From contig CM020619.1 in NCBI GenBank assembly GCA_009829735.1, positions 19,039,816 to 19,103,815 of the forward strand: 64,000 bases of DNA. Direction: 5' to 3'. The notes below the pieces were generated by a model. The model searched no databases, was not told where the DNA came from, and saw only the letters and a list, made by a program, of their open reading frames with translations. Source of the stretch: Pyropia yezoensis (Eukaryota; Rhodophyta; Bangiophyceae; Bangiales; Bangiaceae). The number at the start of each line of letters is the position of its first letter. Position 1 is the stretch's first letter. The position numbers and the translations under genes are program-made. Below are positions 21,704 to 41,968 of this stretch, piece after piece.

Positions 21704-21707
21704 TTTA

Positions 21708-21725: not shown

Positions 21726-21844
21726 GGGCTTCACTCTTCTCCCGTATCGGGACAGCCCTCTTCTTTTTCTGTGGCGTTTGGTTCCTTGGTTCCCGTTTCT
21801 GGTAACGAGATCGTTTGGTTCAGGTCGAGTGCCGCACGGCCAAC

Positions 21845-23551
21845 ATGACGGACCCTGTCCCTTCGGGTGGTCGGGGCCGTGGTGCACCGTCGGACGTTTC
21901 GATGGTTACTCCCGCTGGCCGTGGCCGCGGCGGTCCCTTGGGTCCGTCGAACCGTGGCGGAGGCGGGTCGACAGGGATTCCTCGTCGGGGGACAGCGCCC
22001 CCGGGTGGGATCCGGGTTACAATGGGTCAGGATTCACGTGGGAACGCGGGTTCCGAGTCGGGGACCCGAGTTCCACCTTCGGCTACTGTTGCTGGGTCCC
22101 CGGATATTGTGTCCACACTGGAAACTTTTCGAGATGAGATTATGGCTACTGTTTCCCAGGCCCTGAGCCAGAGTCCTGCTGGCCGGGGTGGGTCCCGTGA
22201 TACCAGTCGTTCCGATCGTTCTCGTTCCCGCCGTCACCGGCGTCGTCATCATTCGAGTGGCTCCTCTTCCTCTTCTTCCTCTGGTACCACATTTTCATCC
22301 GTCTTCGATGAGGAGGACCTGGAACCCATTCGGAACCCACGAACCGAGCCCCAGGTAATCAAGTGTTCCGACGATCGTTTTGCTCGGGTCCTGGACTATC
22401 GTACGTATCGCCTACGGAACAAGAAATCGACCTATGGAACGCGAGAAGCACGTAAGATGGGACGGGTTGCTCGTAACATGAAACACTCTTTTGCTGGGTA
22501 CCCTAATTTCTCTGGGAAAGAGGCCCTCAAGGTGTTCACGTGGCTCCGCAAACTGGTTAAGGCATGTAACGATAATGGGGTTTCCGAGGGCATGGCCCTG
22601 TACGCGATCCCTCATTTCCTGTCTGGGGACGCGGAACTGCGGTACACTCGGGCCCTTCCGGACTCCTCAAGCGCATCAGGTGGCGCGTCGATCACGAGTT
22701 ACCCTGAGGCCGTTAACTGGTTCCTTGAAACGTACGCTGAACCCCATGCGTTGGCACTGGCGCAGGACAAGCTCAGTCGGGCCGCTTAGGAACCAGATGA
22801 GGGGATCGAGGCCTTTGCGGTACGCTTACGGGGTCTGACGGAACTATGTGGGAGCATCCACACCGAAGGTACCATGAGACAGCAGCTGATTCCAGGGCTC
22901 CCTGAGTACCTACGTACGGACGCATTTGTTTACAATATCCCTGACCGTACGTACCAGCAGCTGGTAACGTTTATTGCGGGCAAGAACAAGGCGGCTACCG
23001 AGGTTATCAAGATGGCCCGAGGGTCCTCTGTGACCAAGGCTGGCCCCTCTGGAACCGTCCGCAGACCCACTGAACCGAGGCCCAATCGTTCGTTGGACTC
23101 GTCCCCGTTGATGGCTGTTAATCCTATGGGCCCCTCTACAATCCTTAAGGGCCCCCTCGAGAAGGAAACTGAGAAGAACGGGTCGGGTCAAGCGTTTGGG
23201 TTCAAGGGACCCACGCCCAAGTTCGTGGGAGTACGTACCATGGACAGTCGACGCCCGTACCGTTGTTACCTTTGTTGGGAACCGGGTCACATGGCCCATC
23301 AATGTTCCATGTTGTCTGAGGTCCAACGGAAAGCGGTTCTCCAGGCCCGGGACTCGTTCCTTGCGGCCACTCGTGGACGAAGTCAGAGTACCGATGTAAA
23401 GCCGAACGCGGACCGCCAGTTCCATCGTCAGATCCGTGTTGCTATGGTTCAGGCCCTTTGTGAAGGGATAAACCTCTCGGATGACGAGGCGGACCAAGGG
23501 TACCAAGTGAACGACGGTTCCCAGGAGCCGGAACCCTCGGGAAGAGAGTAA
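21845..23551 (+). pseudogene. gag: gag of element A, one internal stop codon
   Basis: The ATG at 21845 follows CGGCCAAC. The frame reads to a TAG at 22787-22789, then continues in the same frame without any other break to a TAA at 23549. Element B has an uninterrupted Gag whose residues line up across this point, so the TAG is most simply a point mutation (a CAG or similar codon to TAG). The first part is Gly/Arg/Ser-rich (an RS-like stretch near 22200-22290). The capsid-like region contains the blocks DYRTYRLRNKKSTYG and FTWLRKLVKACNDN, shared with element B. A CCHC zinc knuckle (CYLCWEPGHMAHQC, about 23260-23305) lies near the C-terminus and would bind RNA. Readthrough of the stop is a less likely alternative. 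Confidence 0.85.
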
Positions 23552-26500
23552 CGGGGGGCGGATCGAAACGGTCCCCTCCCCATCGACGGGATAGTACCTG
23601 CTCGTTTGCAACTGCGTTGGGGTTCTCCAAGATCTTTAAGGGCCCCGTTATACCTGTACGTTCTGAGTCTCCTATTACTTTGAAAAACCCTTGTTCCTGT
23701 TTGCCCTCTCTGGCACGACGATCCAAGTCTGGGCTCCGACGTCGGATGGGAGTGAAGAAGCCCTATGGGTTCAAGGGTACCTTGCTTGTACTGCGTAAGA
23801 GAAACTTTGCTTTGAACGCTTTGATTCGACTGGACACGGAGGAACCGAAGGACACTACGGCTATTCTGGACACTGGTGCAGGGCCAAGCGTGGTACGTGA
23901 GGATGTCCTCCCTGAAGGGTGGCGACGACTGGCGTCAAGGGCCCCCAAGTCGACGCATGTGTGTGACGCCTCTGGTCAGTTGTTACGGGCCCGTGGGATC
24001 GTGGAACTATCGGTGATCGTGAACGGGAAGCCGATGGAGTTCGAGTTCCTCGTGGTGAGGGCCCTCTCGGTACCGTTGATCCTCGGGATGGACTTTCAGA
24101 AGGAACACGTTAAGGCGATCTACCCTGGAACAGAGTCTGTGCTTTGGAACCTGGGTTTCCTGACCTACGCCAAGAGAACGTGGGACGGAAAGACCCAGAA
24201 CGCTTTTCCTGTGAAGGGTAACCCTGTACGCCGAGATCCTTCTGCCCTGTACCTCTCCAAGGGTGTAACTTTGGCACCCCGATCCCTCCAAGCGGTCTAC
24301 GTCAAGTGCGGAACGAACGGACGTTGTTTACTATATGAACGACCGCACAAGATGTCTAAGAAAGGGCTCCGTCTGCATAACGCCCTGGCTAACGTACGGA
24401 CCCGGCGGAACTTCCGGATCCACATCATGAACATCTCGAACCGGGCGGTCAACTTGCTCAAGAACTTCGCCGTAGGCCTCGCTATCCCGTACGACGGACC
24501 CGTGCTCGAGGTCCCCACTGGTTACTTGCCGGCCCCTAGTGAGGGGGCCGACCCTATTGTTACGCTGGGAACAGAGCAAGGGAACACGTCGGGTCAAGCG
24601 TCGTCACCGGAGGGCGAGACCCCTGAGGGATCCGATGGAACCACGGTACCCGAGCCGGATACAAAGGGCAAGACGTCAGACGGAACCCCGGTCAAGATGC
24701 CCAAGGTGGCGTACGAGCTGATCCCGCCTGAACTGCACCAGGCTGTACGTGGACTTTTGGAACGCTATAAGGGTCTGCGGGACGGACAACTGGGACGTAT
24801 TGACGTAACACCCCACCGGATCACTTTGAAAGACGGGGCCAAGCCTATTCGTTCCCAACCGTACCGTACCGGGCTCCATCATCGGGACCTGATCAAGGAA
24901 CAAGTGGAAAAGCAGACCAAGCTCGGGGTCATTGAGCCGTCTCAGGCTGAGTGGTCGTTCCCGGTCGTCTTGGTCCCCAAGCCCGATGGTACCCCCCGGT
25001 TCTGTGTTGACTACCGCAGACTGAACGATGTGACGGTTAAGGACATGTACCCGTTACCAAGGATGGACGACTGTATCGACTTTCTGGGAGAGGCTACCGT
25101 ATTTTCGATGCTGGACGCGAACTGTGGCTACTGGCAGATCCCTGTTGCTGCCGAGGACCAGGATAAGACGACGTTCACGTGTCACGAAGGAACCTTCCGG
25201 TACATCAGGCTCCCCTTTGGTCTTACAAACGCTCCGGCTACGTTTCAACGGGCCATTGACATGATCCTGTCCGGGGTTAAGTGGAAGACGTGCCTCGTGT
25301 ACCTGGACGACATTATTGTTTTCTCTAAGAACCCTACGGAACACCTGGAGCACCTGGAAGAGATCTTTGGGCTCCTCGCTAAGGCCGGTGTATCCCTGAA
25401 GGCCAGCAAGTGCTTTTTGTTCCATGACGAGGTTGAGTACCTTGGCCATATCGTCGGCAAGGGCCAGCTCCGCGTGAACGAGAAGAACCTAGTCGGGCTA
25501 CGGGAAGCCAAGACACCGAGAACCAAGAAAGACCTACGCAGTTTCCTGGGAATGTGTAACGTTTACCGTCGCTTTGTTAAGGACTATGCTCAGGTTGCTC
25601 GCCCTCTGTTGGCTATGACAAGTACCAAGGTACCCGACCCTCTGCCTCCTTTTAATCCGGCTCAGACGGACGCGTTTGAGGAACTGAAGTACCGACTGAC
25701 CCACACACCGATCCTGGCGCTTCCTCGACGCTCGGGCCAGTTTATTGTGGATACCGATGCAAGCGCTGCCCAGATTGGTTGCGTTTTGCTACAGGAACAA
25801 GAGGACGGGGCCTACAAGCCCGTGGGTTACTGGAGCAGGGTCGTGACACAAGCGGAACGGAACTATAGTACCACGGAACGCGAGTGCCTCGCTGTTGTCT
25901 GGGCTCTCTTTTTGTTACGACCGTACCTAGAGGGGACACGCTTCGTTGTACGTACGGACCACACCGCTTTGAAGTGGATGTTACACATGGACGGAGCCCA
26001 TGGACGTTTGGCTCGTTGGCGACTCCGGTTAGCTGAGTACCATTATACCGTTGAGTTCCGTCCTGGTCAACACCACCATGCTGCAGACTTTATGTCAAGG
26101 CTAGAAACTACGGGACACGACCGAGGACCTATACCTGAGGAGATACCTTCCCTGTTAACCATGGCCAACTTTGTTACCGGATGGGTCCGCCCGAACTTCA
26201 AGACACACAAGAAGTACCCACCGTTGTCGGTTGACAGGATCCTCAAGGCTCAGGGGAATGATAAGCGTTGCAAGGAACTTCAGGAAGAGATGGACCGGAA
26301 CGCTAACTCGCGGTACGGGGAAACACCTGAAGGGATACTTGTACGACTGGCTCCTTTGGACCGAGCCGTTCAGATTGTGGTACCCAAGGAACTACAGCAG
26401 GAGGTACTGACTTTGGAACATGAACCAGGCCACGCGGGACACCCAGGGATCAATAAGATGTATACCTCTATGAGACGAACGTTCTACTGGGAAACTTTGG

Positions 26501-27801
26501 TGGCCGACGTGCACGCTTTTGTTACCAACTGTACCGCTTGTTCCAAGGGCAAGGTTCAAGGAAGGCGACGTACCAATCCGTTCAAGCTGTTCCCCGCAAC
26601 GGATCCCTTTAAGGACGTATGCCTTGACCTGTTGGGACCCTTGCCTGAGACAGTGAACGGGAACAAGTACCTTTTGGTTATCGTGGACAGGTTTACCAAG
26701 CTGACCAGAGTGGTACCCATTAGCAGTCAGGACGCGGAAGTGGTGGCCTCGGCCTTTTTGGATACGTGGGTCGCTTCTTACGGGCCCCCGGAAACGTTAC
26801 TGACTGACAACGGGCCCCAGCTGGCGTCCACGCACTTCCGTGGCGTCTGCAGTATGCTTGGGATCAAACACGTAACGTCTACCACGTACCATCCGCAGAC
26901 CCAGGGACAAGTGGAACGCTTTAACCGTACTATCGTGGCCCAGTTACGTACGTACATTGAGGACCATCAGGACCAGTGGGACGAATTGGTTTCCGTGCTT
27001 ACCGTGGCGTACAATACCAGGCCACAACAGAGTACCGGCGTGGCCCCGTTTGAGTTCGCTATCCCTGAACGCGTGCGTACCGTTGCACTGGACCGGCTCC
27101 CAGGGTCCCCGTATCCCAAGGAGCTCAGTGGCAACGCACGCCAGGTACGCGATATGAGACGGGCCCACCTAAGGAACCTAGCTTTTACGTTACGCAAGAA
27201 CCTTGACCTGGCCCAGCGTCGGTACAAGCGGGGTTACGATAAACGGGTTACGCCTGTGAACGAGACCCTTCGCGTGGAAGACTGGGTGTACGTGGATACC
27301 AACGACGACAGTCGGAAGAAACTGGACCAGAGGGTCAAGGGTCCCTATCGGATCGTGGACCGGGATGGGCACACGGTCACGGTACTAGTTGAAGGGATCC
27401 GTGACCGGGTCAGTAGTGACCATGTGGCCCGTGCACCCACACCCTCTGGCCAGACGGATTCCACGTCCATGTTACATGGCCCGCAGGAACCGGTTGTACC
27501 CCTGGACCACGAGGACTCTGGCACCCCTTTTGTTTGGGAACGTTTCTTGGGGCACGACAGGGACCAGGAAGGGAACCTTTGGCTCTTGGTACGCTGGTGG
27601 GGTAACGCCCAGTCCGAGGATACCTGGGAACCTTACCACAAGTTCGACAGGGCCAAGGTTATCCAGTACTGTGAACGCGTTGGGACCGAACCTCCACTGC
27701 GGGAGGAGGAGGCCATCGTACTACTGGAACCGTTCAAGGCTATCTATGCTGTGTGGCCCTGGAACCTTGAACCGGGTGCAGACATGTGTCCCCGTTGCTA
27801 A
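23485..27801 (+). CDS. pol: pol polyprotein of element A
   Basis: The frame is -1 relative to gag and open from 23485, overlapping gag by 67 bases; the first ATG is at 23746. Expression as a Gag-Pol fusion by -1 frameshifting is therefore likely, though I see no classical slippery heptamer. Domains in order: aspartic protease with DTGAG (about 23869); reverse transcriptase with PRFCVDYRRLN, LPFGLTNAPATFQ and the catalytic YLDD (about 25300); RNase H with VDTDAS, ERECLAV and TDH; integrase with an HHCC zinc module (about 26417-26545) and a D,D35E core (VCLDLLGPLP, TDNGPQ, GQVERFNRT, about 26625-26920); and a chromodomain (about 27530-27690, WLLVRWWGNAQSEDTWEP). All catalytic residues are present and no stop interrupts the frame, so pol looks intact. 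Confidence 0.95.
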   Translation, partial: RGGPRVPSERRFPGAGTLGKRVTGGGSKRSPPHRRDSTCSFATALGFSKIFKGPVIPVRSESPITLKNPCSCLPSLARRSKSGLRRRMGVKKPYGFKGTLLVLRKRNFALNALIRLDTEEPKDTTAILDTGAGPSVVREDVLPEGWRRLASRAPKSTHVCDASGQLLRARGIVELSVIVNGKPMEFEFLVVRALSVPLILGMDFQKEHVKAIYPGTESVLWNLGFLTYAKRTWDGKTQNAFPVKGNPVRRDPSALYLSKGVTLAPRSLQAVYVKCGTNGRCLLYERPHKMSKKGLRLHNALANVRTRRNFRIHIMNISNRAVNLLKNFAVGLAIPYDGPVLEVPTGYLPAPSEGADPIVTLGTEQGNTSGQASSPEGETPEGSDGTTVPEPDTKGKTSDGTPVKMPKVAYELIPPELHQAVRGLLERYKGLRDGQLGRIDVTPHRITLKDGAKPIRSQPYRTGLHHRDLIKEQVEKQTKLGVIEPSQAEWSFPVVLVPKPDGTPRFCVDYRRLNDVTVKDMYPLPRMDDCIDFLGEATVFSMLDANCGYWQIPVAAEDQDKTTFTCHEGTFRYIRLPFGLTNAPATFQRAIDMILSGVKWKTCLVYLDDIIVFSKNPTEHLEHLEEIFGLLAKAGVSLKASKCFLFHDEVEYLGHIVGKGQLRVNEKNLVGLREAKTPRTKKDLRSFLGMCNVYRRFVKDYAQVARPLLAMTSTKVPDPLPPFNPAQTDAFEELKYRLTHTPILALPRRSGQFIVDTDASAAQIGCVLLQEQEDGAYKPVGYWSRVVTQAERNYSTTERECLAVVWALFLLRPYLEGTRFVVRTDHTALKWMLHMDGAHGRLARWRLRLAEYHYTVEFRPGQHHHAADFMSRLETTGHDRGPIPEEIPSLLTMANFVTGWVRPNFKTHKKYPPLSVDRILKAQGNDKRCKELQEEMDRNANSRYGETPEGILVRLAPLDRAVQIVVPKELQQEVLTLEHEPGHAGHPGINKMYTSMRRTFYWETLVADVHAFVTNCTACSKGKVQGRRRTNPFKLFPATDPFKDVCLDLLGPLPETVNGNKYLLVIVDRFTKLTRVVPISSQDAEVVASAFLDTWVASYGPPETLLTDNGPQLASTHFRGVCSMLGIKHVTSTTYHPQTQGQVERFNRTIVAQLRTYIEDHQDQWDELVSVLTVAYNTRPQQSTGVAPFEFAIPERVRTVALDRLPGSPYPKELSGNARQVRDMRRAHLRNLAFTLRKNLDLAQRRYKRGYDKRVTPVNETLRVEDWVYVDTNDDSRKKLDQRVKGPYRIVDRDGHTVTVLVEGIRDRVSSDHVARAPTPSGQTDSTSMLHGPQEPVVPLDHEDSGTPFVWERFLGHDRDQEGNLWLLVRWWGNAQSEDTWEPYHKFDRAKVIQYCERVGTEPPLREEEAIVLLEPFKAIYAVWPWNLEPGADMCPRC

Positions 27802-28179: not shown

Positions 28180-29925
28180 CTAGTACCTACGGAAACGACT
28201 GTCGGGACGAGAAGACTCTTCCTCGTCCATGTCGTCTCGACCACGGACACGAGAACCTTCCTGGGTCCCCGTCCAGGCACGTCGCGCGGCCGCCTCGGCG
28301 TTACCCAACTCGGTACCAAGGTCCCCACGGATCCCGTTACGGTCAACCAGGTTCAATAGCGCTTTGTAGTCTGGGTTACTGGAGCCCCCTTGAGCACAGG
28401 TCCACTCGGCTACACGGGCCCCAAGGTTAACAGTCGCGTGAAGGGAAGCCGACAACAGGGGCCCGACATGAGCGTTCGCAAGGACGTCCGCGGGACCCCC
28501 AAAGAAAGTGCGTAGCCCAAGAACCGCCGTGGTAGTCAGGTTTCCCTCCAGGTCCATAAGTTCCGCGTCGGGCACGTCCCCATGGTCCAGAAGGTTAGCC
28601 ACGTACACGGTACGACCCCCGGGAGGGTTGGAACGATGACCAGCTGACCCCGATGACCGAGCGCCCGGAAACCCAGAGGGACCTGCGGGAACCACCTCGT
28701 CCGACTGATCAGCGTTCTCGTCCTGGGCCCCGAGGATCTCACGCCCTTCCAGTACGTCCGATGAGTACGGTAGGTCCAGTGGGGCCAGGTCCTCGTCTAC
28801 CAGGGCCGCCCATACCCCGTCCCGACTCTCGAACCGAACCCGAACGAAGGAACCGCGATCCTTGCGACGTTTCCCGGAAGCGAGGAGACGCGCACGGAGC
28901 CCCGCGGCGGAAACCACTTGGTCACTAAGGGTCAGAAGGGCGTCCAGGTCCCGCACGGCGGCCTCGTCCACGCCACCGGGACCCTGACAGATGGTACGGG
29001 TACCGACACGCTGGATCCACGTACGCAGGGGCCGAGAGAAGAGGCACAGGTGACCTGTCCGACGGGCGAACTCAAGCAGGTGCACAGCACAGTTGGTAGC
29101 CCATTCCGTTCGAAACACGTACCAGGCGCACGCGTCCGACGAACGAAGAAGTTCCGTGAAGTAACACTGGACCGCAGGAAGTTCCACAAGGGCCCCGTAT
29201 GGTAGTTCCACGTTCTCGAACCAGTGCGGAACCCGAACGTAATGGAGCCCACGGGTAGTCGCGGAACAACTGGGGAACTCTTGTTGATGCCACCCGACCA
29301 GGAACCGACTCTTGTCACGATGGTGCCGACTGAACACCAGGCTAGGTAGGGTCACTTGGTACCCGGGACGGTTCAGGTACGGGGGAGACCCGATCAGGTA
29401 ACAGGGTGAAGGTGCGGCAGGTAGGGGTCCTTGGAGGAGTTCCGTGCGAACCGTCTTGAACCGTTCGACGTACCCGACCTCGTCCGCGTGCCGTACAACC
29501 GTGATCGACAGGGAACGGTCCGCAAGGACAGGGATCCGAGCATCCGGCATTACCGCCATCTGCTTGCGAAACGAGTTACCCGGACAGCTCCCGTCCACGG
29601 CTCGAAGGATCCCATGGGCCCGGGTACCAGTAACCCAACCTCGCGCCTCCTCCCGACGCCACGCCGTAACCGTCTCGGATCCGAAGTCCTGAGGAACCAC
29701 GCCAACTATGGCCGCGTACGACTGGCCCGCCCCGGTTTCCTCTTGATCCATTGGGAGAACGTCTGGCCCAGTAACGGGGCCACCTTGAGCATCGCGTACA
29801 CCTTGCCCAGCTGGTACCCCGGACCCAGGAGCGGGTACACCTTGCCCAGCTCGGTCACCTTGTCGCTCAGGGGCCCCAGGGCCCGCGCCAGCAGGCGAAC
29901 CCGCCGCGGCGCTGCCGGTAACCAT
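28180..29925 (-). CDS. Antisense accessory ORF of element A (581 aa), unknown function
   Basis: An uninterrupted reverse-strand frame lies wholly inside the retrotransposon, between pol and the 3' LTR. The first ATG is at 29925 (MVTGSAAAG); the frame is open further upstream but only with a GTG. It has a Gly/Ala/Pro-rich N-terminus (about 1-75), then a ~350-residue ordered region rich in W, Y and hydrophobics, and an acidic/basic tail (RDDMDEEESS...FRRY). The ordered region aligns with the antisense ORF of element B: DEVGYVERFK with EEVEDVQRAK, FLVGWHQQEFP with YLVTSAQLEFP, FENVELPYG with WPQVEVPYG, and KDRGSF...LPYSSDV with KDDGAL...YPYVPGV, with nearly equal spacing. No Gag, Pol or Env domain, signal peptide or membrane segment is seen. 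Antisense ORFs at this position are described in some plant Tat-lineage elements (e.g. Grande, RIRE2), but homology to those is not claimed. Confidence 0.8.
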   Translation of the reverse strand: MVTGSAAAGSPAGAGPGAPERQGDRAGQGVPAPGSGVPAGQGVRDAQGGPVTGPDVLPMDQEETGAGQSYAAIVGVVPQDFGSETVTAWRREEARGWVTGTRAHGILRAVDGSCPGNSFRKQMAVMPDARIPVLADRSLSITVVRHADEVGYVERFKTVRTELLQGPLPAAPSPCYLIGSPPYLNRPGYQVTLPSLVFSRHHRDKSRFLVGWHQQEFPSCSATTRGLHYVRVPHWFENVELPYGALVELPAVQCYFTELLRSSDACAWYVFRTEWATNCAVHLLEFARRTGHLCLFSRPLRTWIQRVGTRTICQGPGGVDEAAVRDLDALLTLSDQVVSAAGLRARLLASGKRRKDRGSFVRVRFESRDGVWAALVDEDLAPLDLPYSSDVLEGREILGAQDENADQSDEVVPAGPSGFPGARSSGSAGHRSNPPGGRTVYVANLLDHGDVPDAELMDLEGNLTTTAVLGLRTFFGGPADVLANAHVGPLLSASLHATVNLGARVAEWTCAQGGSSNPDYKALLNLVDRNGIRGDLGTELGNAEAAARRAWTGTQEGSRVRGRDDMDEEESSRPDSRFRRY

Positions 29926-30494
29926 AGGGGCCAGGGTGGAGGGGAACGTAGGGGTACGGGTGATGGGGTACGGGGGCACGGAGACGGAGAAGGGGAACGA
30001 GGAAACGGCGGAGAACGAGGTGACCACGGGAAGCGCCGCGGGGACGATGGTACAATGGGACCCGGGTGCTGGGGACGAGGGAACCCGTGAGGGTGCTCTT
30101 ATCCACTGGCCCCCTGCGTTCCAAATGGTACCAGGGCTGCGCCCACGTTCCGCTGGCCCCCGCCTGTGCCCCTACACCGCGTCACCCCCCCTGGCGTACG
30201 GCGCCACATGGGGAGAGCGACGGGGAGGAGGAATGCAGGTGGGTGGCCGGCGCGGGCTGCGCCACACCCCCTTTGGTTCCCCTGCGCGTGGCCTGCACCT
30301 CTCCTGTACCCGCCCCTGGCCAGTCTGAACGGGTTCCCCTGGCACGAGATACTTGTCGGGGGGCCCCTGTTGACAGACACTGGCCCCACAACCCGTTCGT
30401 TGTGGCCCTGTTGTAACCCTGTCAGACGTTCCCCAGTCCCTTTCCTCGGCTTCCTTGTTGGCCGGCGGGACGCTCGGCCCTAGTGAGGGGGCCA

Positions 30495-31138
30495 TGTGGC
30501 GTTCTGAGCCCCTGGGACCGTTGGAACCCGGGAGCCTGACTTGGGACCCGGCTGGCAGCGTTACGTGGAACCACGCGCTGGCCGAGGATCCCTGCATCGG
30601 TGGCCCGGGGCAGTGGCGACACGCCCGGTGCCCTGATTGGTCACCCGGAGCGGTGGACTTGCCGGGTTGGGGCATACTGACCTTCGGTTTATTTGTTTGA
30701 TTTTTCGCATTTGTTTTCCTTGCGTGATTTCGTGTCTTTCCCCTTTTTCCCACTGGGTTTTTTTTGGGGATTGACATTTGTGTGTGGGGGGATTTCGCTT
30801 GCTTTTTGTGTGTTGGCCCGGTGAGCGGCCGGTGCCTTGCTGGCACTTGGCCCGCTGGGGGCGCCCTCTGGGGGCCTCGCTCAGGGCCCCTGGAGGGGCC
30901 AGGGGGGGAGGTTCTTGAGGGGTGCTCCGGGGTTCTCCCCGGGGCCATCTTGTAAAATCAACAGTACTTTGGGTTCCTTCTCCCTCGGGCTTTTGTCCTG
31001 TTTACCTTTGCCTCTTGTCGTGGCGGGCGAGTGGATCAGCAAGGGCTCTTACCTGTTCCTTCCTGGGCTTCGGACTGTGGTCTCTGTGTGTGTGGTTGTG
31101 GTTTCTGGGTCCGGGAATCTGGGTCCCATTACGCTACA
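30495..31138 (+). repeat. 3' LTR of element A
   Basis: 644 bp, the same as the 5' LTR apart from three substitutions, and followed by the target duplication CTCAT at 31139-31143. Preceded by the purine-rich GTGAGGGGG, the likely polypurine tract. Confidence 0.95.
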
Positions 31139-31143
31139 CTCAT

Positions 31144-32589
31144 TGTACCCATGACTGTTGTACAAACTGTTTTGTCCGTCATTGGTGGCTCCTGATCTTC
31201 GGTCCCCTTCTGACCCCTTCACCATGATGACGCGCCCAGCTTGTTCAATTTAATGTGAATCTGTTAATCGCGCACCTATTGCGACCTTAGAGTCAGAGCG
31301 ATTCGAGCTGCACATCTCCCTGTTCGCGCCTTAGCAGCGTCAAAAATATTTTCTCCAAAAGCGCGTTGGGTGCCTTGCACAGCCCTTTTCGTTGCTTCAA
31401 ATGATCAAACTCAGCAACAGGAGAAACTTAAATTCGTTCTTGGGGAGTACTAAGGGCTCTCACTGACAGGCCCTCACCCACTTGCCCAATCAGGAGCGTC
31501 TCTTGGACCAACTGTTCGGTCGCCGCGCCTTCACAGGCCGAAGTCGCCCTTGCTCTTTTCCACTTCTGCAAGAACATATAAGGTTCATATGAGTTCTGTA
31601 GGTAAGTGGCTTCGACCTGTGAGAGAGTTTCAGATTCTTGAAAGACAAAGTTGCTGAGCTCCGGCCGTCTGCACGATTAAAGAGTTGGTTTATGGAGCAG
31701 CTGGTCTCAGTCTTGAGCTGAAGGCAGTAAGGGTAGTGCTGCAGACAAACCGTTGACATGTGCCCTGTTGACGCGTGCCCACCATACCACATGTTTTGCA
31801 ATCTTGCTCTGCCAAGTTGAGAACGTGTCAGTCAGTCAGCGCCGAAGCTTGTGAAATCGCCCAGCCGCTCTGCAAGGAGCAGCTGGCGCGCTGGATGTGA
31901 CACTGTTCGCTTGCTGGACGTACATTTGGCCATATCAAACTGGTTGAAGCTCTGCATTGCTTGACTGTGGGGTTTGATATTGCACTTTGCTATTCCTTCG
32001 TGTGATCACACCAAAATACAAGAGCCCGAGGACATGAGCCGATCGCGCGCCGGAGATAGCGTGTGGAGCTCTGTCACTCCCCGTTCTTGAAAAGCTTGTG
32101 ATTTCTGTAGTGACTGAGAGTCTTCAATTGAACGCTGATTGGTTGGAATCCATGTTTTTTCTCGTGGAGTCTTACGCCCAACTCGGGCGCTTCTCGCTAA
32201 TACGGTTCCCCAGGTCAACAGGGGGTCTCCTTCTCTCGTCGACGCACTCAGAAATGAGAAAAAGCCTCATATCACATTGTTTGCGCAACAACAGGTTCTC
32301 ATGCCGAACGTTCAATCCATGGACCCTTCTCGTCGGAGTCGACTCAATGGCCATCCACGGCCTGATCTCGATGCTGTCGCGATGAGACAAAATATTGCTA
32401 GTTTCTGAACTCGGTCGTGGGAAAATGAGATTGATTCCCTCAGAGAGTCTTTCAGCAACTCTCTGCAAAAGGACCAACCATGCGACTCATTTGCCCCCAA
32501 AGATCGCATTCGACCTCGCTTACTTCCAGATCTCCAGAAAAAAAAGTGGTCCAGCAAAAATCTCCTCCTGTGAGGCAGCTGACAGTCAA
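31144..32589. other. Low-GC spacer between elements A and B
   Basis: About 1.45 kb with no ORF above ~125 codons and stops in all frames. Composition resembles 17513-21054 and 41974-43600, suggesting one low-GC tract into which both LTR elements inserted. No repeat boundary or RNA gene seen. Confidence 0.5.
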
Positions 32590-32594
32590 GAAAC

Positions 32595-33063
32595 TGTGGC
32601 AGTATTGACCCCCAGGTAGGGGGGCAACACGTGCCATGCAAGGGGCGGCAGGCCACTAGCCTGATCCGTTCCTCCCCCTGCATTTGGGTCCATATTCCCT
32701 AAGTTTGGTATAGTTAGCTTAGTAGTAAATCCAACTTGGATTTGAGGGTTTTCTGCATTTATCGTCTTGAATTTTCGTGTGGCCCGGTGGGCAGGTGCTG
32801 GGGTGGGAGATTCTGAGTGGCGAGATTCTGAGTGGGCCCTGGGGGGATAAGGGGAGGGACAGCGGGGCTTGGCCCTGCTTCCCCGTCCCGACCAAGAAAC
32901 TGTTGGACCACACATCATCCTCTTGTTTGTCCGAGGGGGGTTTGCCCCACAACAGGGACAGAGTGTGTGCGACTTGCACTTCTTCCGGTTCCCCCGACAC
33001 GGGAGGCAGCCCTAGCACACCGCCACAACTTGGGTGCCGTGTGTGCTAGTGGTTTTTGCCACA
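32595..33063 (+). repeat. 5' LTR of element B
   Basis: 469 bp, preceded by GAAAC. Contains a repeated phrase GAGATTCTGAGTGG near 32808-32835. The primer-binding motif TGGTGGAGCAGCAGGGGA begins at 33066, two bases after the LTR end. Confidence 0.95.
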
Positions 33064-33182
33064 TTTGGTGGAGCAGCAGGGGACAGAGGTAAACTTTACT
33101 TCCGGGTGCACCCGGGTGTAGGGGGCCCTCTGTCTCAGAGAAACGGTGGTCTTGGACCGTGTCATACGGATCGTCAGCCAAC

Positions 33183-35114
33183 ATGGCTAGCTCGGACCCT
33201 CCGTCGTCCGGGGAGTACACGGGTGACGCACGTACTTCAGTGCCTTTGAATACTGGTGAGACACAGGTGGGTTTACCTGGGGTCGCAGAGGGACTAGAGG
33301 TCCCTCAAGCCAGCAGGACTGGAAGTACGGGCGGGCAACAGGCCACCCCGACTCAGTCGGGAGTTCACTCGGGTGACACTTCTGATGTGGGTGGGCCGAA
33401 GTCTGGCCACCGTGTGGTATACTCAACGGGAACGTCCCAAGGGGTGAGGACTGTCCCCGCGGGTTCCACTCGGGTTGGAGCCAACTTTGGCTTCGAGTCG
33501 TCGCCAACTAGGCTTTCGGAGGACGGTGGACCTCCGTTGGTCGGCGATGGGCTCGCGCCCATGCCCCCGGTTGAGACCCCTGAGGAACGTGGTTACCCCT
33601 CAGGTGGACTCCCGGAGGCGGACCGAGACTCAACTGGAGTCGTCAATCCACTCCTCGCGGAAACTGTCCGTCGGGAGGCGACCAATGTGTTGCGGCAGAC
33701 TTTGCCGGACCTGGTGGTCACGATGACGAATACTATTCTGAATCAGATTGTGGCGAGTTTGCCAGATGGCCTTAATGTCCAAACCGGATTGGGGCTTTCG
33801 AGCCCGCAGGCGCAGGGGGAATCCCCCCTTACGCCTATCTCTGGTCGCCCCGAACTGGGGGCGACACCTGTGACTCCCAACGAGGGAGCCACACCGTACT
33901 CGGTGGGGCGTACGCCCTTCACGGGGGAGTTCCCCCCGGAAACGCCGGCGGCTACACCAAGCGCGCCGCGCCGGACTACAGGCACTGAGAGTGAACTTAC
34001 CCCAGTGCCACAGCGGCTGTTCCCTCAACGTGAGGTGCCGCCCAAGATCCAGGTAGCCAACCCGGTCTACCAGAGGATCTTTGACTGTGAGACCTACGCC
34101 CGCCACAACAAGTCGGTGGCGTATGGTCCTGACCAGGCCCGAGCCATGGGCCGTGCCAAGAAGAATGCACTTCATTCTTTTGGGCACAAAGCGGAGTGGG
34201 ACGGAACTCCCCCCCTCCGTGTCTTTGAGTTCCTACGTCGTTTCACAAAAGCCTGTGACGACAATGCCATAAGTGAAGGCATGGCTTTTTACATGCTACA
34301 GGAGTTTACGAAGGGCGACCTACGGACAGAACTTATGTCCGTCATGCCCAGCTCCTTAAGTGGAGGCGCTGGGGAGGTGACGTCCTATTTGGAGCTCGTC
34401 AACTGGTTGTTGAGAGCCATGGTTGATGAGGCAGCGTTGGCTTCTCAAGTCGAGGAGTTTACGCAAGCCCATCAGGAAGAGGCGGAGGACGAGTTGTCCT
34501 TTGCGGAGCGAGTCCGTAAGCTCAACAATCTTTGTGGGTTTCTTCATCCACAAGCTGTGGTGAAGAGTCGGTTTGTGGAGGGACTCCATTGGTCAGTCCG
34601 GATGGAGACCCGGGAGCATAACACTGCCCGGGCGACCCTGGCCGAGTTGGCCAGGTTCGCCTATCGCAGAGGCGAAGCCTACCGCAAGTTGCGGGAGGAA
34701 CAACGCCAGGAGCGACAGGCCGAGTTGGCCAAGGAACGGGAGGAGGCGCGCCAGGCCAGAGAGTTGAGAGAGGCACGCCGAATCCGCAAGGAGAGGGTGG
34801 TAGCTGCCGTGGGAACTTCTCGGGGTATCCCTTCGTCTTCCCCAGTTGGGAAGACCCCTCCCGGAACGGACCATCGGTGTTGGAACTGCAACTCCGATGG
34901 TCATTGGGCATATGATTGCCCCAAGTTGAGTAAACGCATCCAACAACTTGCTAGGAATGCGAGTAAAAAGTCGGCTACGAACGAAGTACGTTCACGCCGC
35001 GAGGGTGGGTCTCGACCGGTCGTTGCGGTCGCCACACCCTCGGCGGAGGAGGCGGACACGTCGTCCTCGGACTCGTCGTCTTCCTCCCCGCCCTCAGATT
35101 CGGACGCCAAGTAG
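33183..35114 (+). CDS. gag: Gag of element B (643 aa)
   Basis: The ATG at 33183 follows CAGCCAAC, the same start context as in element A. The protein is uninterrupted. It has a Ser/Thr/Pro-rich N-terminal third; a capsid-like region with DCETYARHNKSVAYG and EFLRRFTKACDDNAISEG, matching element A; then a strongly charged Glu/Arg helix (about 34680-34800, likely coiled coil); and one CCHC zinc knuckle (CWNCNSDGHWAYDC, about 34879-34920). The tail is acidic and Ser-rich. The overall length is typical for Ty3/gypsy Gag with extensions. It ends at TAG 35112; pol lies in the -1 frame, open from 34967, an overlap of 148 bases. Confidence 0.9.
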   Translation: MASSDPPSSGEYTGDARTSVPLNTGETQVGLPGVAEGLEVPQASRTGSTGGQQATPTQSGVHSGDTSDVGGPKSGHRVVYSTGTSQGVRTVPAGSTRVGANFGFESSPTRLSEDGGPPLVGDGLAPMPPVETPEERGYPSGGLPEADRDSTGVVNPLLAETVRREATNVLRQTLPDLVVTMTNTILNQIVASLPDGLNVQTGLGLSSPQAQGESPLTPISGRPELGATPVTPNEGATPYSVGRTPFTGEFPPETPAATPSAPRRTTGTESELTPVPQRLFPQREVPPKIQVANPVYQRIFDCETYARHNKSVAYGPDQARAMGRAKKNALHSFGHKAEWDGTPPLRVFEFLRRFTKACDDNAISEGMAFYMLQEFTKGDLRTELMSVMPSSLSGGAGEVTSYLELVNWLLRAMVDEAALASQVEEFTQAHQEEAEDELSFAERVRKLNNLCGFLHPQAVVKSRFVEGLHWSVRMETREHNTARATLAELARFAYRRGEAYRKLREEQRQERQAELAKEREEARQARELREARRIRKERVVAAVGTSRGIPSSSPVGKTPPGTDHRCWNCNSDGHWAYDCPKLSKRIQQLARNASKKSATNEVRSRREGGSRPVVAVATPSAEEADTSSSDSSSSSPPSDSDAK

Positions 35115-35125
35115 GCGGGAAACGA

Positions 35126-38100
35126 ATGACCGTTGGGGCTGGTCGTCCGAAGCTCACAACGGCAGCCTCGGCCAAGTGGGCCAGGAGGACGAACCAACCG
35201 TGCCGGATACTGCGGCGACCTAAGGGAGTCCGCACACCTCGGGTAGGACTCCCCAAGAACGTAAACCCACGTCGGGTCATCGCGGTGCTGACGGGTGAGA
35301 ACTTCCAGGTGGCTGGACGGGTGCAGCTTGCCCCCGGCCGTGCATGCTGTACCCGTATCGTACTTGATACCGGGTCAGGAGCCTCCTTGATACGCAAGTC
35401 GCTATTACCAAAGGAGGTGAAGCTCCAACGCTGGAGGTCCAAAGCTGACCATATGATTGACATCAATGGTGGGGTACTTCCCATCGTTGGTGCCGTGACC
35501 CTACCAACTAGGTTGGGGACCCATGAGGTCGACGTGACCTATGGCGTAGTTGAGAATATATCGGTACCCCTGCTTCTGGGTACCCCTTATGTTGTTACAC
35601 AAGTGCCATTGATTTGTGGCCCCGAGTACTGGGTCAAGCTGATGAATGGGGAGACTATCCCCATCCTTGGTAAGGGAAAGTCTGTGGCTCCTGTGACAGT
35701 CTCACAGTCGAAGCCTGTTTGTTCGGTGAGGGAAGGGTTTACTGCTACCCTGCGTTTAGCCCGCAAAGTCACGTTGCCCCCCAACTCGGTGGCGCACGTT
35801 GATGTTGTAACTGATTTTACGGGGAACGGGTTGGTGCACCCTCACCCCCGTCTTGCTCGCAAGCACCAAGTGCATGTTGCCCTTGGCACGATGGACTCCA
35901 AAGCCGGAGTCCCGTGGAGGATCCAGGTGATGAACCTGAGCCCGACGCCCAAGTACTTCAAGTCGGGAGCCAAGTTCGGCTATATCGACCAACACGAGGG
36001 ACCGGTAGTAGCGGTCACCCTCAACGCGGGCGCAAGTAGCGACCCGAAGTCCGGAAAGGAGAAGCATCAAGCCAAGTCGGCCGCCTCTCCTCGACCCCAT
36101 GTGAACATGGAGGGTGTCCCCCCCAGGTTGAGGGTTCAAGTTGAACGCCTCTTGGACCAATATCACAAGTTGTGGGATGGTCAATTGGGACTCATGAGAG
36201 CCACCCAACACCGGATCGAGTTGAAGCCCGGTGCACCCCCTATACGCCAACAACCGTATAGGGGAGGACCTCGTTCAAGGGCCCTCGTTAAGGAGCAAGC
36301 TGCTCGCATGGAGGCCCTCGATGTGATCGAGGCCAGCAACGCCGAGTGGGCGAGTCCGGTGGTTATCGTCCCCAAAGTTGATGGGACCCCCCGGTTTTGT
36401 ATCGACTACCGTAAGCTCAACGAGAGCACGGTGAAGGACAGTTATCCCCTACCTAGGATGGATGACTGTCTGGACTCTCTGGGGGAGGCACACGTGTTCT
36501 CTACCCTGGACTGTATCGCGGGGTACTGGCAAATTCCCATTGCCCCGGAGGACAGGCATAAAACTATCTTTACCTGTCACTGTAGTACCTACCAGTGCAA
36601 GCGTCTACCGTTTGGTCTGTGTAACGCGCCGGCAACTTTCCAGCGCGCTATGGACATGATTCTGGCCGGAGTACGGTGGCAGATCTGTATTGTGTACCTA
36701 GACGATATCATTGTGTTCTCCCGAAGTCCGGAGGAACACATTGGCCATCTTGGCCAGGTGTTCAAGCTACTTGCTGACGCCGGTGTGTCACTGAAGGCGA
36801 GTAAGTGCCACCTCTTTACTCAAGAGGTGGAGTACTTGCGACATGTTGTCCATCCGGGGCGTCTCAGTGTTAACGAGAAGAACTTGAGGGCCATTCGTAA
36901 GGCTCAGTACCCCCGGACCCAGACCCAGATGAGGAGCTTCCTCGGGATGTGTAACGTGTACCGACGTTTCACTAAGGGCTTCGCCAAGGTGGCGAAGCCG
37001 TTGAATGAGCTAGTGAGCTCAACGCTACCGAAGAACCTGCCTCCCCCAAGTCGGGTGGAGCAGGAATCCTTTGAGACTCTTCGGGACCTTCTGCTGAAGC
37101 CCCCCATCTTGGCTATTCCCAGGTTGGGAGGCCACTACATCCTGGATGTGGACGCTAGCTACGACCAACTTGGTTGTGTGTTGCTTCAGCAGCAGCCGGA
37201 CAAGGAGTACTTGCCGGTGGGATACTTTAGTAAGGGGCTGAACTCGGCCGAGAAGAACTACGGAGTCACCGAGTTGGAAGGACTCGCAGTGGTGTGGGCG
37301 GTGACGTCACTTCGTCACTACCTGGAGGGTGAGAAGTTCCTCATCCGCTGTGACCACCGCGCGTTGCAGTTCATCTTTAAGACGGACTGTACGAACACTC
37401 GTCTCAACCGGTGGAGGGTGCGACTGGCACCCTTCAACTTTGACATTGAATACCGACCTGGCAGGCAACATGCCCTTGCCGACGGCCTCTCTCGGGTACC
37501 TACCGAGGGGCTGGACACTAACCCAGTCGATGAGGACATCCCCATCGCGGGGGTAGTCACGCGCTCGGGTCAGGCGTTGAACCCCGAGGCGCCAGGGAAC
37601 AAGAAGTACTTGCCCCTGTCCCTGGACGAGGTGGTGAAGGCCCAGGCCGAGGATCCCTTCTGCAAGTCGCAGAGGGATATACTGGATACAGTGGTAGAGA
37701 CGCGTTTCTTTCTGGGAGACGATGGCCTCCTCATGAGGAGGGGGGTATTCCAGGGGACCGAACAACTTGTCGTCCCCGCATCCCTCAAGGACAGTATCCT
37801 TGAGAGGGAGCACAACGCTCCCACAGGTGGACACCTGGGGTCCAGTAAACTGTACCAGACCCTGAGGACCAGGTACTACTGGCCGTCCATGGTGGTGGAC
37901 ATCTACAGTTGGGTGGCTGCCTGCACAAGTTGTGCACAGAATCGTCTGATGGAACGGCGGCCTACTACGGCTATGCTATTGTTCCCGGCCAAGGAGCCCT
38001 TCGCCGCGTTGGCGATGGACATCCTTGGGCCACTGCCCGTGACCGAGGAGGGCAACCAGTACCTCCTGGTCATCTGTGACCGCTTCACGAAACTTACGCG

Positions 38101-39109
38101 AGCGATCCCACTGGCAGAGATCACGGCCATGTCGGTCGTGTCAGCCTTCCTAGATCACTGGGTTGCCGCGTAAGGCATCCCAGATAGTACACTATCGGAC
38201 AATGGACCGCAATTTGCGTCTGTACTGTTTCAGGGAGTGCTGGATATGTTGGGGGTTAAGGCAGACTATGCCACCCCCTACCACCCACAAACTAATGGGC
38301 AGGTGGAGCGCTTCAACAAAACTATTGTTAGGCAGCTGCGCCACTATGTGAGTGAGCACGTGAAGACGTGGGACCAATACATTTCTATCCTTACTACTGC
38401 CTACAATTCGCAGGTTCACGCATCTACAGGGGAAGTACCCCTCGCTTTTGTGACCCCCCGTCGTGTGCGGTCTATTGCCGTGCGGCGGTCGCTCCCAACT
38501 AGGGAGGATGGTGGCAGTACGCCTACTCCTACTGAGAGTAAGGCGGAGTTCGCTGCTAGGCTTGAAAACCTCATCCCTAAAGTCAGGGCTGAGATGGACA
38601 AAGCACAAAAGCGCTACAAGCGTACCTTTGACAAAAAGGTGCGCAATGCTAAGCACGTCCCCGAGCAGGGTGACTGGGTGCTGGTACACTCGCACACCCC
38701 AACTGGGGGTAAGCTGGTATTCCAGACGAAGGGACCGTACCAGGTCCTTCGTACTGATGGGCGGCGCTTCACCATCGAAAGTGACGATGGGGTCCGCACA
38801 GTGAACGGACAGGACGTGGTCAAAGTTGCACCACCGCCTGCAGGCGACCCAGCTTGGGCGCGTGCGTTGGAATCGTGGCGCCTCCCCGCACTGCCTGCGG
38901 CCAAACAGGGCCCGCAGGAGTACGTGTTCGATAAGTTCATCGACCACGGATGGGATGAAGACACTGACCGCCTCATGTTGAGGGTGCGTTGGTTTGGCTA
39001 CAAAGCCAAGGATGATACGTGGGAGTATGTGGAGGACCTTCCCGCTGAGAAGGTCCGGGCGTACTGTGCCCGGAATGAGATAGACCCTAACAGCCCTCCC
39101 TCAACGTGA
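35126..39109 (+). pseudogene. pol: pol of element B, interrupted by one stop in integrase
   Basis: The ATG at 35126 lies just after gag in the -1 frame; that frame is already open from 34967, so a frameshifted Gag-Pol is the likely product. It contains protease (DTGSG, about 35366), reverse transcriptase (PRFCIDYRKLN, LPFGLCNAPATFQ, YLDD near 36697), RNase H (LDVDAS, ELEGLAV, CDHRAL), and integrase zinc module and core. A TAA at 38171-38173 falls between the first and second catalytic aspartates (LDHWVAA, then GIPDSTLSDNGPQ). Element A has a tyrosine at that position. After the stop the same frame continues unbroken through GQVERFNKT and a C-terminal chromodomain (LMLRVRWFGYKAKDDTWEY) to TGA at 39107. 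A single point change explains the break; as it stands, no full integrase can be made. Confidence 0.9.
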
Positions 39110-39220
39110 GGGAAGGCCGGACAACAGTGCCAAGAGAGTGCTTCAAGTCGAAGTGGTACGCAGAGTGGCTTTTAACTACAGCCCTAACCCTCACACTCTC
39201 ACAACAAAGGCAGCTGCCAA

Positions 39221-41160
39221 CTAGGCACGCATGCTAGACTCTCCCACTCCACGGCACTCGCCCTCACGTGGAGGCGAGCGGCGAGACCCACGCCGATAAC
39301 GGTCTCCACTCGTTGGAGGGGGCGGCGGCTCCAAGTCGGAACCGTCGCGCCCCTCACGGTCGCGCAAGTGGCGTCGACCGTGGCCACTCTTCTGCCTGGT
39401 CTTGCGCGCAAGTTTGCGACGCAGACGCTGGACAGACTCCGTCTCCGACGGGGTAGAGGACTCCGAAACGGAGTGAGACAACTCGTCTTCCGATACGGAA
39501 GGAGAGCGCCGCGAGTGTCGGCGACGACGGCGAGGAGGCGAGTATGCCCGGCTCGCACGACGTTTGCCACGCCCAAGTGGGGCTGGCTGGGGCATAATAG
39601 CCCCAATGCGAGCCAACTCGGCTGTCATAAACTCCGCCACCGACTCGCAACTCGCGGTCGCCACTGCAGTACGAACGCGCTAAGTTGAGGAGTCTCGGAA
39701 CTCTGTAGGGTTGCGGTCGACGCGGCCAACCAGGGAATGGTGCGCACCAACGTGGTCATCATCATCTCGGAGGTTAGAGGCGTGGGCGGCAACACCAACT
39801 TGGGGTATACCGTGAGGAGGGTGGCCCCCAAGTTGGGGGACACCGGGGTGGAAGACTCCACGGCCACGCTGATCGGGATGTTCCCGTGAGGTTGGAAAGG
39901 AACAGGAGGAAGCGGAGGGGCCCGCCGAGGTGGCGATACCCGGGTGTAACTGCGACCCCGACTTGGGGCCCCCGCAGTGGGTTGAGTCATATGGTCATCA
40001 TAGGACGGCACGGCCATAACTATGGGCTTGTCCGGGGGTGGCGCAGTGTGGCGATCCACCCCCGGGACATACGGGTAGTCCCCGATGCCCAACCCCTCTC
40101 GTAGGACCACACGGCCGTCGTGAAGTTCACGAGCGACCCACACGAACTGGCGAAGTGCGCCATCGTCCTTGGGCCCACGAGTGGGGCGGCGCAACTTGTG
40201 CTCAATGCTCTCCCACTCGATAAACTTATGGAGCCGGAGCATCTCCTCAAGTAGAGTGAGTTGTCCTGATGAGCACCCCTCAGCAACTAGCTGAGGGGTG
40301 AGCTGTTCCAAACCTTGGAGTAGCCGGAGGGGGAGATGCCAGAGCATCCCCCGCCGCCGAACACAGGACACCCAGGTCGACATGACCTCGAGGAGCCACT
40401 GGGTGGCCAACATGGCCCACACCAGGTGATCAGGGGCAGCCGTCAACATGACGGAGCCGAAGTGGTCAAGCAACCGTGGCAACAACGCCGGGAACCCGTA
40501 GGGGACCTCAACTTGAGGCCACCACTCGGGCTTCTTCGGATAGTACTGCTCCTTACTGGCAGCAGACTGTTGAGGAAACTCAAGTTGAGCCGAGGTCACC
40601 AAGTAGGGACCTCACCGGAAGTCTTTCTCCATCCGCACATCAAAGTGATGAGTGTGCGGATCGGCCGCGTGGAGGTACGGTGGGCGAGTTGCCACAGCAT
40701 CCCACGTGAAGGTCGGCAAGTCGCCGGGACCCGGGATAGTTCCCCCGCGGTCCACCATGGCCTTGGCACGCTGAACGTCCTCAACCTCCTCATCGTCCAG
40801 GAAGGCAAACTGGTCCGTCCTGAAGCCGGCAGGGAACCCGACCCTACGGGGATACTTCTCCCGTAGGCGGTCCCATACCCGGCCCATCGCTGCGCCAAGT
40901 CGGCCACAGCGAAGAACAGTCAGCCCCTCCTCATAGAGAGGCCAAGCGGGGTAAAACCACCGCCCCAAGGCCTCACGCGGGACAAATTGTCCCGCCTCCG
41001 GGGGAGACCCCGCCGTCAACCCAAAGCCGGGCGACGCGGGAGTCCCGTCCCCCGGAGCGATCGCGGAGCCCCCGCCGGAAGTCCCGGCGGGTGCTGCACC
41101 GTAGGAGGTGTCCTCCATGCGCTCGTCAAGAGAGTCCGTCTCCACTCCCGGAGTCGCCAT
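39221..41160 (-). pseudogene. Antisense accessory ORF of element B, broken by a stop and a frameshift
   Basis: Reverse strand, between pol and the 3' LTR, in the same position as in element A. The frame starts with ATG at 41160 (MATPGVETDS), reaches a TGA at 40612-40614, then continues in the same frame to 39625. The remaining C-terminal part lies in another frame (39221-39664), joined near 39660-39690, where VAEF matches VAEW of element A. The middle region aligns with the element A protein, including PPYL, EFP..SA, VEVPYG, and KDDG followed by D.PY..GV; spacings are 63 against 64 and 108 against 110 residues. The last part is rich in Arg and Ser (RRRRRHSRRS), more basic than in A, which suggests nucleic-acid binding. 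No known domain recognised. Confidence 0.7.
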
Positions 41161-41499
41161 GGCTCTCCCCAAGTTGGGGAGAGACGCTCTGGCTATCGCA
41201 GCACGAGACCCGCCTCAAGTTGAGGGGGACTCGGATCGTGGGTATACGGGTGGCCTCCCCAGCGTGGGGCGGCCCGGTGGAAGGTGAAGGGGAGGTGGTG
41301 GTGATGGTGAAGTGTGAACTGAGGAGAGCAAGCTGCCGAGTGGGCAAGCTTGAGGAGAGGGGCGGTCAACGTGACCGCCTCCACATCCGCGTTACGTACT
41401 CAAGGGGGGGACAGCAAGTCGCGCCCCCAACGCCGAGACGTGCGTTTACGCACCCCCTCACAGGGCCGACCGGGTCGGTCGGAACTGAGGAGAGGGGAG

Positions 41500-41968
41500 T
41501 GTGGCAGTATTGACCCCCAGGTAGGGGGGCAACACGTGCCATGCAAGGGGCGGCAGGCCACTAGCCTGATCCGTTCCTCCCCCTGCATTTGGGTCCATAT
41601 TCCCTAAGTTTGGGATAGTTAGCTTAGTAGTAAATCCAACTTGGATTTGAGGGTTTTCTGCATTTATCGTCTTGAATTTTCGTGTGGCCCGGTGGGCAGG
41701 TGCTGGGGTGGGAGATTCTGAGTGGCGAGATTCTGAGTGGGCCCTGGGGGGATAAGGGGAGGGACAGCGGGGCTTGGCCCTGCTTCCCCGTCCCGACCAA
41801 GAAACTGTTGGACCACACACCATCCTCTTGTTTGTCCGTGGGGGGTTTGCCCCACAACAGGGACAGAGTGTGTGCGACTTGCACTTCTTTCGGTTCCCCC
41901 GGCACGGGAGGCAGCCCTAGCACACCGCCCCAACTTGGGTGCCGTGTGTGCTAGTGGTTTTTGCCACA
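41500..41968 (+). repeat. 3' LTR of element B
   Basis: 469 bp, followed by the GAAAC duplication. At least six substitutions relative to the 5' LTR (for example near 41613, 41820, 41840, 41891, 41902, 41928). A purine-only stretch GAGGAGAGGGGAG directly precedes it. Confidence 0.95.

What the first reader, a model, noticed from the sequence alone, without database searches (positions are those of the whole stretch)
28180..41160. Conserved antisense gene in two distinct chromovirus elements
Elements A (28180-29925, -) and B (39221-41160, -) each carry a long reverse-strand ORF in the same place, between pol and the 3' LTR. The proteins align by eye in matching order and spacing: DEVGYVERFK/EEVEDVQRAK; PPYL in both; FLVGWHQQEFP/YLVTSAQLEFP; FENVELPYG/WPQVEVPYG; KDRGSF/KDDGAL; LPYSSDV/YPYVPGV. 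PPYL to PYG spans 64 and 63 residues, PYG to KD 110 and 108. The LTRs are unrelated at a glance and Pol is diverged, so retention of this frame implies selection. Antisense ORFs at this position are known from some plant Tat-lineage elements (Grande, RIRE2 type), but I know of none established as a conserved family in chromodomain elements. It may encode a regulator, RNA-binding or silencing-suppressing protein; function is open.
Basis: partly seen in the sequence, partly recalled or inferred. Interest (0 to 1): 0.88.

Follow-up and report, generated by a model that had tools for sequence, protein, structure and literature searches.

The report
Selected antisense gene in red-alga retrotransposons
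Two families of mobile DNA elements in what appears to be the nori seaweed genome carry, on the strand opposite to their usual genes, a related protein gene that natural selection has kept intact, and what the protein does is not yet known.

Summary
Element A has an open antisense frame (581 aa from ATG, 28180-29925, minus) between pol and the 3' LTR. Element B has a related frame at the same place, but this copy is broken (stop 40612-40614, frame change near 39680); 112 of 122 scored matches in the genome have an open frame of 700 or more codons. The A and B proteins are related (SW 145, shuffle maximum 80; hhalign E 3.7e-10). The frame is under purifying selection: dN/dS 0.24-0.34 between A subfamilies, 0.09 within B, against 0.05-0.06 for RT at similar dS. 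The other five frames hold 3-24 stops (five copies). So it is a real, fast-evolving gene. Another form of the element lacks it and has also multiplied. No convincing Pfam, PDB or viral-fold relative was found. I read it as a trans-acting, probably nuclear, accessory protein; that function is inferred. Antisense genes here are known from plant Retand, Grande and RIRE2 and fungal Boty, so this is a new variant: a protein family without TRP28, in chromodomain elements of a probable red alga.

The parts
21060..21703 (+). Element A 5' LTR
   Evidence: 99.5% identical to 30495-31138; TG..CA ends; TSD CTCAT
21815..23551 (+). Element A gag region, interrupted in this copy (21815-22789 and 22874-23551)
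   Evidence: ORF list; CCHC-like motif by eye; first part 21815-22789 has no Pfam match, second part not scanned
23617..27801 (+). Element A pol: protease, RT, RNase H, integrase, chromodomain-like C-terminus
   Evidence: Pfam RVT_1, RT_RNaseH, Integrase_H2C2, rve above cut-off; RVP and Chromo just below theirs; C-terminus matches CDYL2 chromodomain E 1e-4
28180..29925 (-). Element A antisense gene, 581 aa from first ATG (frame open to 30171)
   Evidence: relatives; selection
28726..29574 (-). Folded core (residues 118-400) modelled alone
   Evidence: AlphaFold2 mean pLDDT 72.6, pTM 0.76
29926..30494 (-). Leader between 3' LTR and antisense ATG; presumed antisense promoter and 5' UTR
   Evidence: position; A/A2 identity falls from LTR towards ATG; promoter inferred
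30495..31138 (+). Element A 3' LTR
32595..33063 (+). Element B 5' LTR
   Evidence: 98.7% identical to 41500-41968; TSD GAAAC
33159..35114 (+). Element B gag, 651 aa, zinc knuckle
   Evidence: Pfam zf-CCHC
35126..39109 (+). Element B pol, interrupted by a stop at 38171-38173; chromodomain-like C-terminus
   Evidence: Chromo 22.0 against cut-off 25.1 bits; RT 60% identical to A
39221..41160 (-). Element B antisense gene, broken in this copy (stop 40612-40614; frame change near 39680); 647 aa in other copies
41500..41968 (+). Element B 3' LTR

Best explanation
The antisense frame is a genuine third gene of a lineage of chromodomain Ty3/gypsy elements of a probable Bangiales red alga. Shown here: it codes for protein under purifying selection, lies between pol and the 3' LTR facing pol, has about the same synonymous divergence as the RT of its lineage, and changes its protein sequence about five times faster than RT. 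Inferred: it is transcribed from a promoter in or next to the 3' LTR; the protein acts in trans, most likely in the nucleus, as an accessory regulator of the element, with countering host silencing as my preferred role. Elements that lack it but keep pol would then use the protein made by other copies. I put coding function at about 0.97, an accessory trans-acting role at about 0.55, and an anti-silencing role specifically at about 0.25.
For: dN/dS 0.24 (A/A2), 0.28 (A/A3), 0.34 (A2/A3), 0.09 within B. Synonymous divergence of the gene (1.06, 1.58, 1.36) is like that of RT (0.90, 1.36, 1.41), while RT dN/dS is 0.05-0.06 (one copy of each subfamily). 0 of 2000 neutral simulations stay stop-free at A/A2 and at A/A3 divergence; the other five frames carry 3-24 stops in the five copies examined. 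All 44 antisense matches with an RT match within 6 kb (44 of 95 examined) are on the opposite strand and downstream of it. Identity of gene and of RT to A rise together (Spearman 0.85, 38 pairs). Relatives exist outside this assembly, one annotated in Pyropia vietnamensis. No profile similarity to B Gag, no strongly hydrophobic stretch. B ends in an arginine-rich tail that would suit the nucleus or RNA. Gene-less, pol-bearing relatives multiplied.
Against: No transcript or protein evidence was available. Success of gene-less elements may simply mean that the gene is dispensable. Within A alone the antisense frame (0.45) is no better than the opposite frame sharing its third positions (0.40), and 109 of 2000 neutral simulations stay open at that small divergence; the case for selection rests on the between-subfamily and B comparisons. 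A-type proteins are acidic (pI about 6) with at most one weak basic cluster, so nuclear location rests mainly on B. No structural relative supports any molecular activity. Fast protein evolution could be plain relaxed constraint.
Confidence: 0.55

Rival explanations
1. The protein is a structural or particle component, for example a second capsid-like or envelope-like protein.
For: A mainly helical folded core and the env-like position between pol and 3' LTR.
Against: No profile similarity to B Gag (hhalign probability 0.3; A Gag not compared); maximum 19-residue hydropathy 1.0-1.4, below the usual membrane threshold of about 1.6 (threshold recalled); antisense orientation needs a separate transcript; gene-less elements multiply.
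Confidence: 0.12
2. It is an integration or replication helper (targeting, nuclear import or nucleic-acid chaperone) rather than a regulator.
For: Arginine-rich C-terminus in B.
Against: No known nucleic-acid binding domain; A-type proteins are acidic overall.
Confidence: 0.2
3. The antisense RNA itself is what matters (double-stranded RNA or interference with sense transcription) and the open frame is a by-product.
For: The transcript would be complementary to the 3' end of the genomic RNA (geometry).
Against: dN/dS well below 1 in this frame; the only other frame with a low ratio shares its third positions and has 15-24 stops.
Confidence: 0.04
4. The frame is a chance open frame in GC-rich DNA, or the shadow of a sense-strand gene.
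For: GC-rich sequence yields long spurious frames. Within A the sense frame sharing third positions has a slightly lower ratio (0.40 against 0.45).
Against: That sense frame has 15-24 stops in five copies and higher ratios than the antisense frame in A2, A3, B and all between-subfamily comparisons; the remaining frames give ratios of 0.85 or more, nearly all above 1.
Confidence: 0.01
5. It is a captured host or viral gene that spreads as a passenger without helping the element.
For: No relatives outside this family were found, so the origin is open; gene-less forms succeed.
Against: Purifying selection in A subfamilies and B; a useless passenger should decay.
Confidence: 0.08

Closest known systems
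Retand-lineage plant elements with antisense TRP28 ORF (PF04195)
   Same: Antisense ORF between pol and 3' LTR, conserved across families; some members lack other coding domains (PMC11963269, passages).
   Different: Retand are non-chromovirus elements of flowering plants; PF04195 finds nothing in this genome or in nine members of this family; one weak short tandem repeat in A and none in B.
Maize Grande gene23, rice RIRE2, bean PvRetro13 antisense ORFs
   Same: Same position and orientation; Grande gene23 has an upstream promoter of its own and a nuclear protein (PMC7264820, passages).
   Different: Plant elements; no sequence of theirs was compared here, so relatedness was tested only through Pfam.
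Boty of Botrytis cinerea (antisense ORF)
   Same: Antisense ORF at the same position, outside plants (PMC7264820, passages).
   Different: Fungal host; sequences not compared; clade not established here.
HTLV-1 HBZ and related antisense retroviral genes
   Same: Antisense gene of a retroelement with a nuclear product; HTLV has an antisense promoter in the 3' LTR (PMC11963269 and PMC7264820, passages).
   Different: No Pfam domain, hence no bZIP match, in the present proteins; that HBZ is a bZIP protein is recalled.
VANC anti-silencing proteins of VANDAL DNA transposons (recalled, no call)
   Same: Possible analogue: transposon-encoded protein that counters silencing in trans.
   Different: DNA transposons of plants; no sequence link tested.

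Membership tests
Chromodomain Ty3/gypsy elements (chromoviruses) | Protease-RT-RNase H-integrase order between LTRs | tested here: met
   A: RT, RNase H, integrase above cut-off, protease RVP 19.5 against 20.7 bits. B: RT, RNase H, H2C2 above cut-off; protease (E 0.046) and rve_3 (25.7 against 26.5 bits) weak. LTRs and TSDs
Chromodomain Ty3/gypsy elements (chromoviruses) | Chromodomain at the integrase C-terminus | tested here: met
   A matches CDYL2 chromodomain E 1e-4; A and B C-termini align; Pfam Chromo below curated cut-off in both (19.5 and 22.0 against 25.1 bits), so moderate
Chromodomain Ty3/gypsy elements (chromoviruses) | RT placement in the chromovirus branch | not tested
   no reference RT tree was built
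Retand lineage | Antisense ORF between pol and 3' LTR | tested here: met
Retand lineage | Antisense ORF encodes TRP28 (PF04195) | tested here: not met
   0 matches at E<=10 in six frames of the genome; none in 9 members. A very distant relation is not excluded
Retand lineage | Non-chromovirus integrase (no chromodomain) | tested here: not met
   chromodomain-like C-terminus present
HBZ-type antisense regulators | bZIP domain | tested here: not met
   no Pfam bZIP match in A, B or relatives
Envelope-like third ORF | Transmembrane segments, sense orientation | tested here: not met
   antisense; maximum 19-residue hydropathy 1.0-1.4 in four proteins
Grande/HBZ-like expression | Antisense transcript from the 3' end | not testable with these tools
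   no stranded RNA data at hand

The most novel reading that the evidence does not exclude
A family of retrotransposon-encoded, trans-acting anti-silencing (or otherwise host-countering) proteins with a fold not represented among known structures, made from the strand opposite to gag-pol in red algae, with a standing population of gene-less 'cheater' elements that depend on the gene-bearing ones.
Probability: 0.22. Interest if true: 0.8.

Novelty: new variant of a known kind. Interest (0 to 1): 0.58.

Why it matters
Antisense genes between pol and the 3' LTR are known in plants and in fungal Boty, and their roles are described as undetermined (PMC7264820, passages). Here is a protein family with no TRP28 match in chromodomain elements of a probable red alga, with over a hundred scored open B copies, codon-level selection, a fast protein rate beside a slow RT, and natural gene-plus and gene-minus forms of one element. 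That makes the general question (why do retrotransposons keep antisense genes?) testable by comparison within one 107-Mb genome.

Tried and rejected

Limits: genome searches score only the best candidates (72 of 1994, 122 of 3833, 98 of 4866), so counts are lower bounds and the B rows favour near-identical copies. dN/dS used copies chosen for being stop-free (9 A, 7 A2, 7 of 8 A3, with L047 dropped because its frame has an upstream extension, and 7 of the 17 fetched B loci). In one search, 95 antisense rows were used: all 73 plus 22 that did not overlap them; five further rows that were pieces of listed copies were left out; several rows are pieces of one copy. In one search, 38 of the 44 pairs were used: the window itself, one second piece and four without an identity to A were dropped.
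Full report
Setting. The window is part of a 107.5-Mb genome in 11 contigs; the three seen in my calls are 43.6, 34.3 and 29.4 Mb. I infer Neopyropia (Pyropia) yezoensis or a close relative: GC is high (53-72% by 2-kb block), an antisense relative is annotated in Pyropia vietnamensis, and a 257-aa EukProt protein matches A's antisense protein at 91% identity over 29% of it. The published P. yezoensis genome has 65% GC and 48% repeats, mostly LTR retrotransposons (PMC7423979, passages). The three-chromosome count of that species is recalled.

Anatomy. Element A spans 21060-31138 with 644-bp LTRs at 99.5% identity and TSD CTCAT; element B spans 32595-41968 with 469-bp LTRs at 98.7% and TSD GAAAC. 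Both have TG..CA LTR ends and share the string TGGTGGAGCAGCAGGGGA just inside the 5' LTR, the place of the primer site. Pol has RT, RNase H and integrase above Pfam cut-offs; protease and chromodomain are just below theirs, and the C-terminus of A matches the CDYL2 chromodomain at E 1e-4. RT of A and B are 60% identical. In this window A's gag and B's pol and antisense gene are interrupted.

The antisense gene. In A it is open for 663 codons and gives 581 aa from the first ATG. In B the window copy has a stop and a frame change, but other copies encode 647 aa. A and B score 145 by Smith-Waterman against a maximum of 80 in 500 shuffles, and the best of the other 35 frame pairs reaches 76; hhalign aligns 236 columns at E 3.7e-10. 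Five related proteins at 34-68% identity to A were found in a database of 5.8 billion, two more in a profile search, and one at 97% to B.

Copies. The A protein gives 73 matches in its own genome, 98% down to 39% identity apart from itself; of 43 single-frame matches of 540 residues or more, the window's included, 24 have no stop (counted). RT (427 codons) is stop-free in 62 of 98 matches (counted). B gives 122 matches, 112 with an open frame of 700 codons or more. These lists hold only the best-scoring candidates.

Selection. In codon alignments of stop-free copies the antisense frame has dN/dS 0.45, 0.33 and 0.47 within A, A2 and A3, 0.09 within B, and 0.24, 0.28 and 0.34 between subfamilies; third positions hold the largest share of differences (0.43-0.78). 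Four other frames give ratios of 0.85 to 5.4, all but one above 1. The fifth, the opposite-strand frame that shares third positions, gives 0.19 in B and 0.37-0.58 elsewhere; it is lower than the antisense frame only within A (0.40 against 0.45), and it carries 15-24 stops in the five copies examined. In neutral simulation 109 of 2000 runs stayed open at a within-A divergence, but 0 of 2000 at A/A2 and 0 of 2000 at A/A3 divergence; the observed copies had been chosen for being open. RT between single copies of the same subfamilies has dN/dS 0.05-0.06 at similar dS. The gene thus appears to have travelled with its pol and changes protein sequence about five times faster.

Position. Of 95 antisense matches examined, 44 have an RT match within 6 kb; all 44 are on the opposite strand and downstream of RT, 34 of them 2.04-2.14 kb away. 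The other 51 have none in my list; both lists are capped and many rows are pieces. Identity to A of gene and RT rise together over 38 pairs (Spearman 0.85).

Gene-less forms. 55 of 98 RT matches have no antisense match within 6 kb. Of four that I read, three (L069-L071, RT 96-98% identical to A) lack the equivalent of about window 27940-29711 and carry about 700 nt without similarity to the window in its place; the fourth (L072) keeps a diverged remnant. The segment has 41 matches in the genome: 13 full-length at 93% or more, and 21 covering only its first ~425 nt. 29 of the 55 unpaired RTs have it downstream on the same strand within 13 kb; their RT is stop-free about as often (19 of 29) as in gene-bearing elements (27 of 43); for the other 26 it is 16 of 26. 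So the gene is not needed in cis for spread. This fits complementation in trans, but also dispensability.

Protein. No Pfam or NCBIfam domain at a credible score, no similarity to B Gag, no membrane-like stretch; three A-type proteins are acidic, B has an arginine-rich tail. A model of residues 118-400 is reasonably confident (pLDDT 72.6, pTM 0.76): mainly helical with a long central helix and two strands near its end. Neither PDB nor BFVD gave a convincing match.

How it most likely works. The frame is a protein gene (about 0.97). It must be read from a transcript of the opposite strand, so an antisense promoter in or near the 3' LTR is required; this is inferred, with Grande gene23 and HTLV as precedents (PMC7264820, PMC11963269, passages). 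Fast protein change beside a slow RT, absence of structural-protein features, and multiplication of gene-less forms favour a trans-acting accessory protein (about 0.55); an anti-silencing role is my preferred guess within that (about 0.25). Alternatives are a replication or integration helper and a structural protein.

Comparison. Antisense ORFs at this place characterise Retand elements (TRP28) and occur in Grande, RIRE2, PvRetro13 and fungal Boty. The present family shares position and orientation, shows no TRP28 match, and sits in chromodomain elements of a probable red alga. The listings of nine full-text searches of open-licence papers showed no description of it; subscription papers were not searchable, so the claim of novelty is limited to that library.

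Noticed in passing
L009 and L023 upstream flanks (element A and A2 3' LTRs): A and A2 are 97-100% identical over about 400 nt of the LTR although their RTs differ at synonymous sites by dS 0.90; identity falls gradually towards the antisense gene. This points to recent LTR exchange by template switching.
   Followed up: partly
L069:226-929 and 40 further places: A segment of ~700 nt sits where the antisense gene core should be (13 full-length matches at 93% or more); 21 more matches hold only its first ~425 nt, many beside RTs 89-93% identical to A's. Origin unknown.
   Followed up: partly
window 47375-47780: A relative of the B LTR (85%) in inverted orientation, next to gag-like stretches 45707-47492 and 50844-52421 that resemble each other at about 80%.
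   Followed up: no
window 3011-3227 and 4070-4294: Imperfect inverted repeat of about 200 nt with 840-1040 nt between the arms, 78-95% complementary; the adjoining 2914-3005 recurs inverted at 19676-19767.
   Followed up: no
G000 family B: Most of the 122 scored B matches have the same score against the query, suggesting a recent burst of near-identical copies; B RT shows the same pattern.
   Followed up: no
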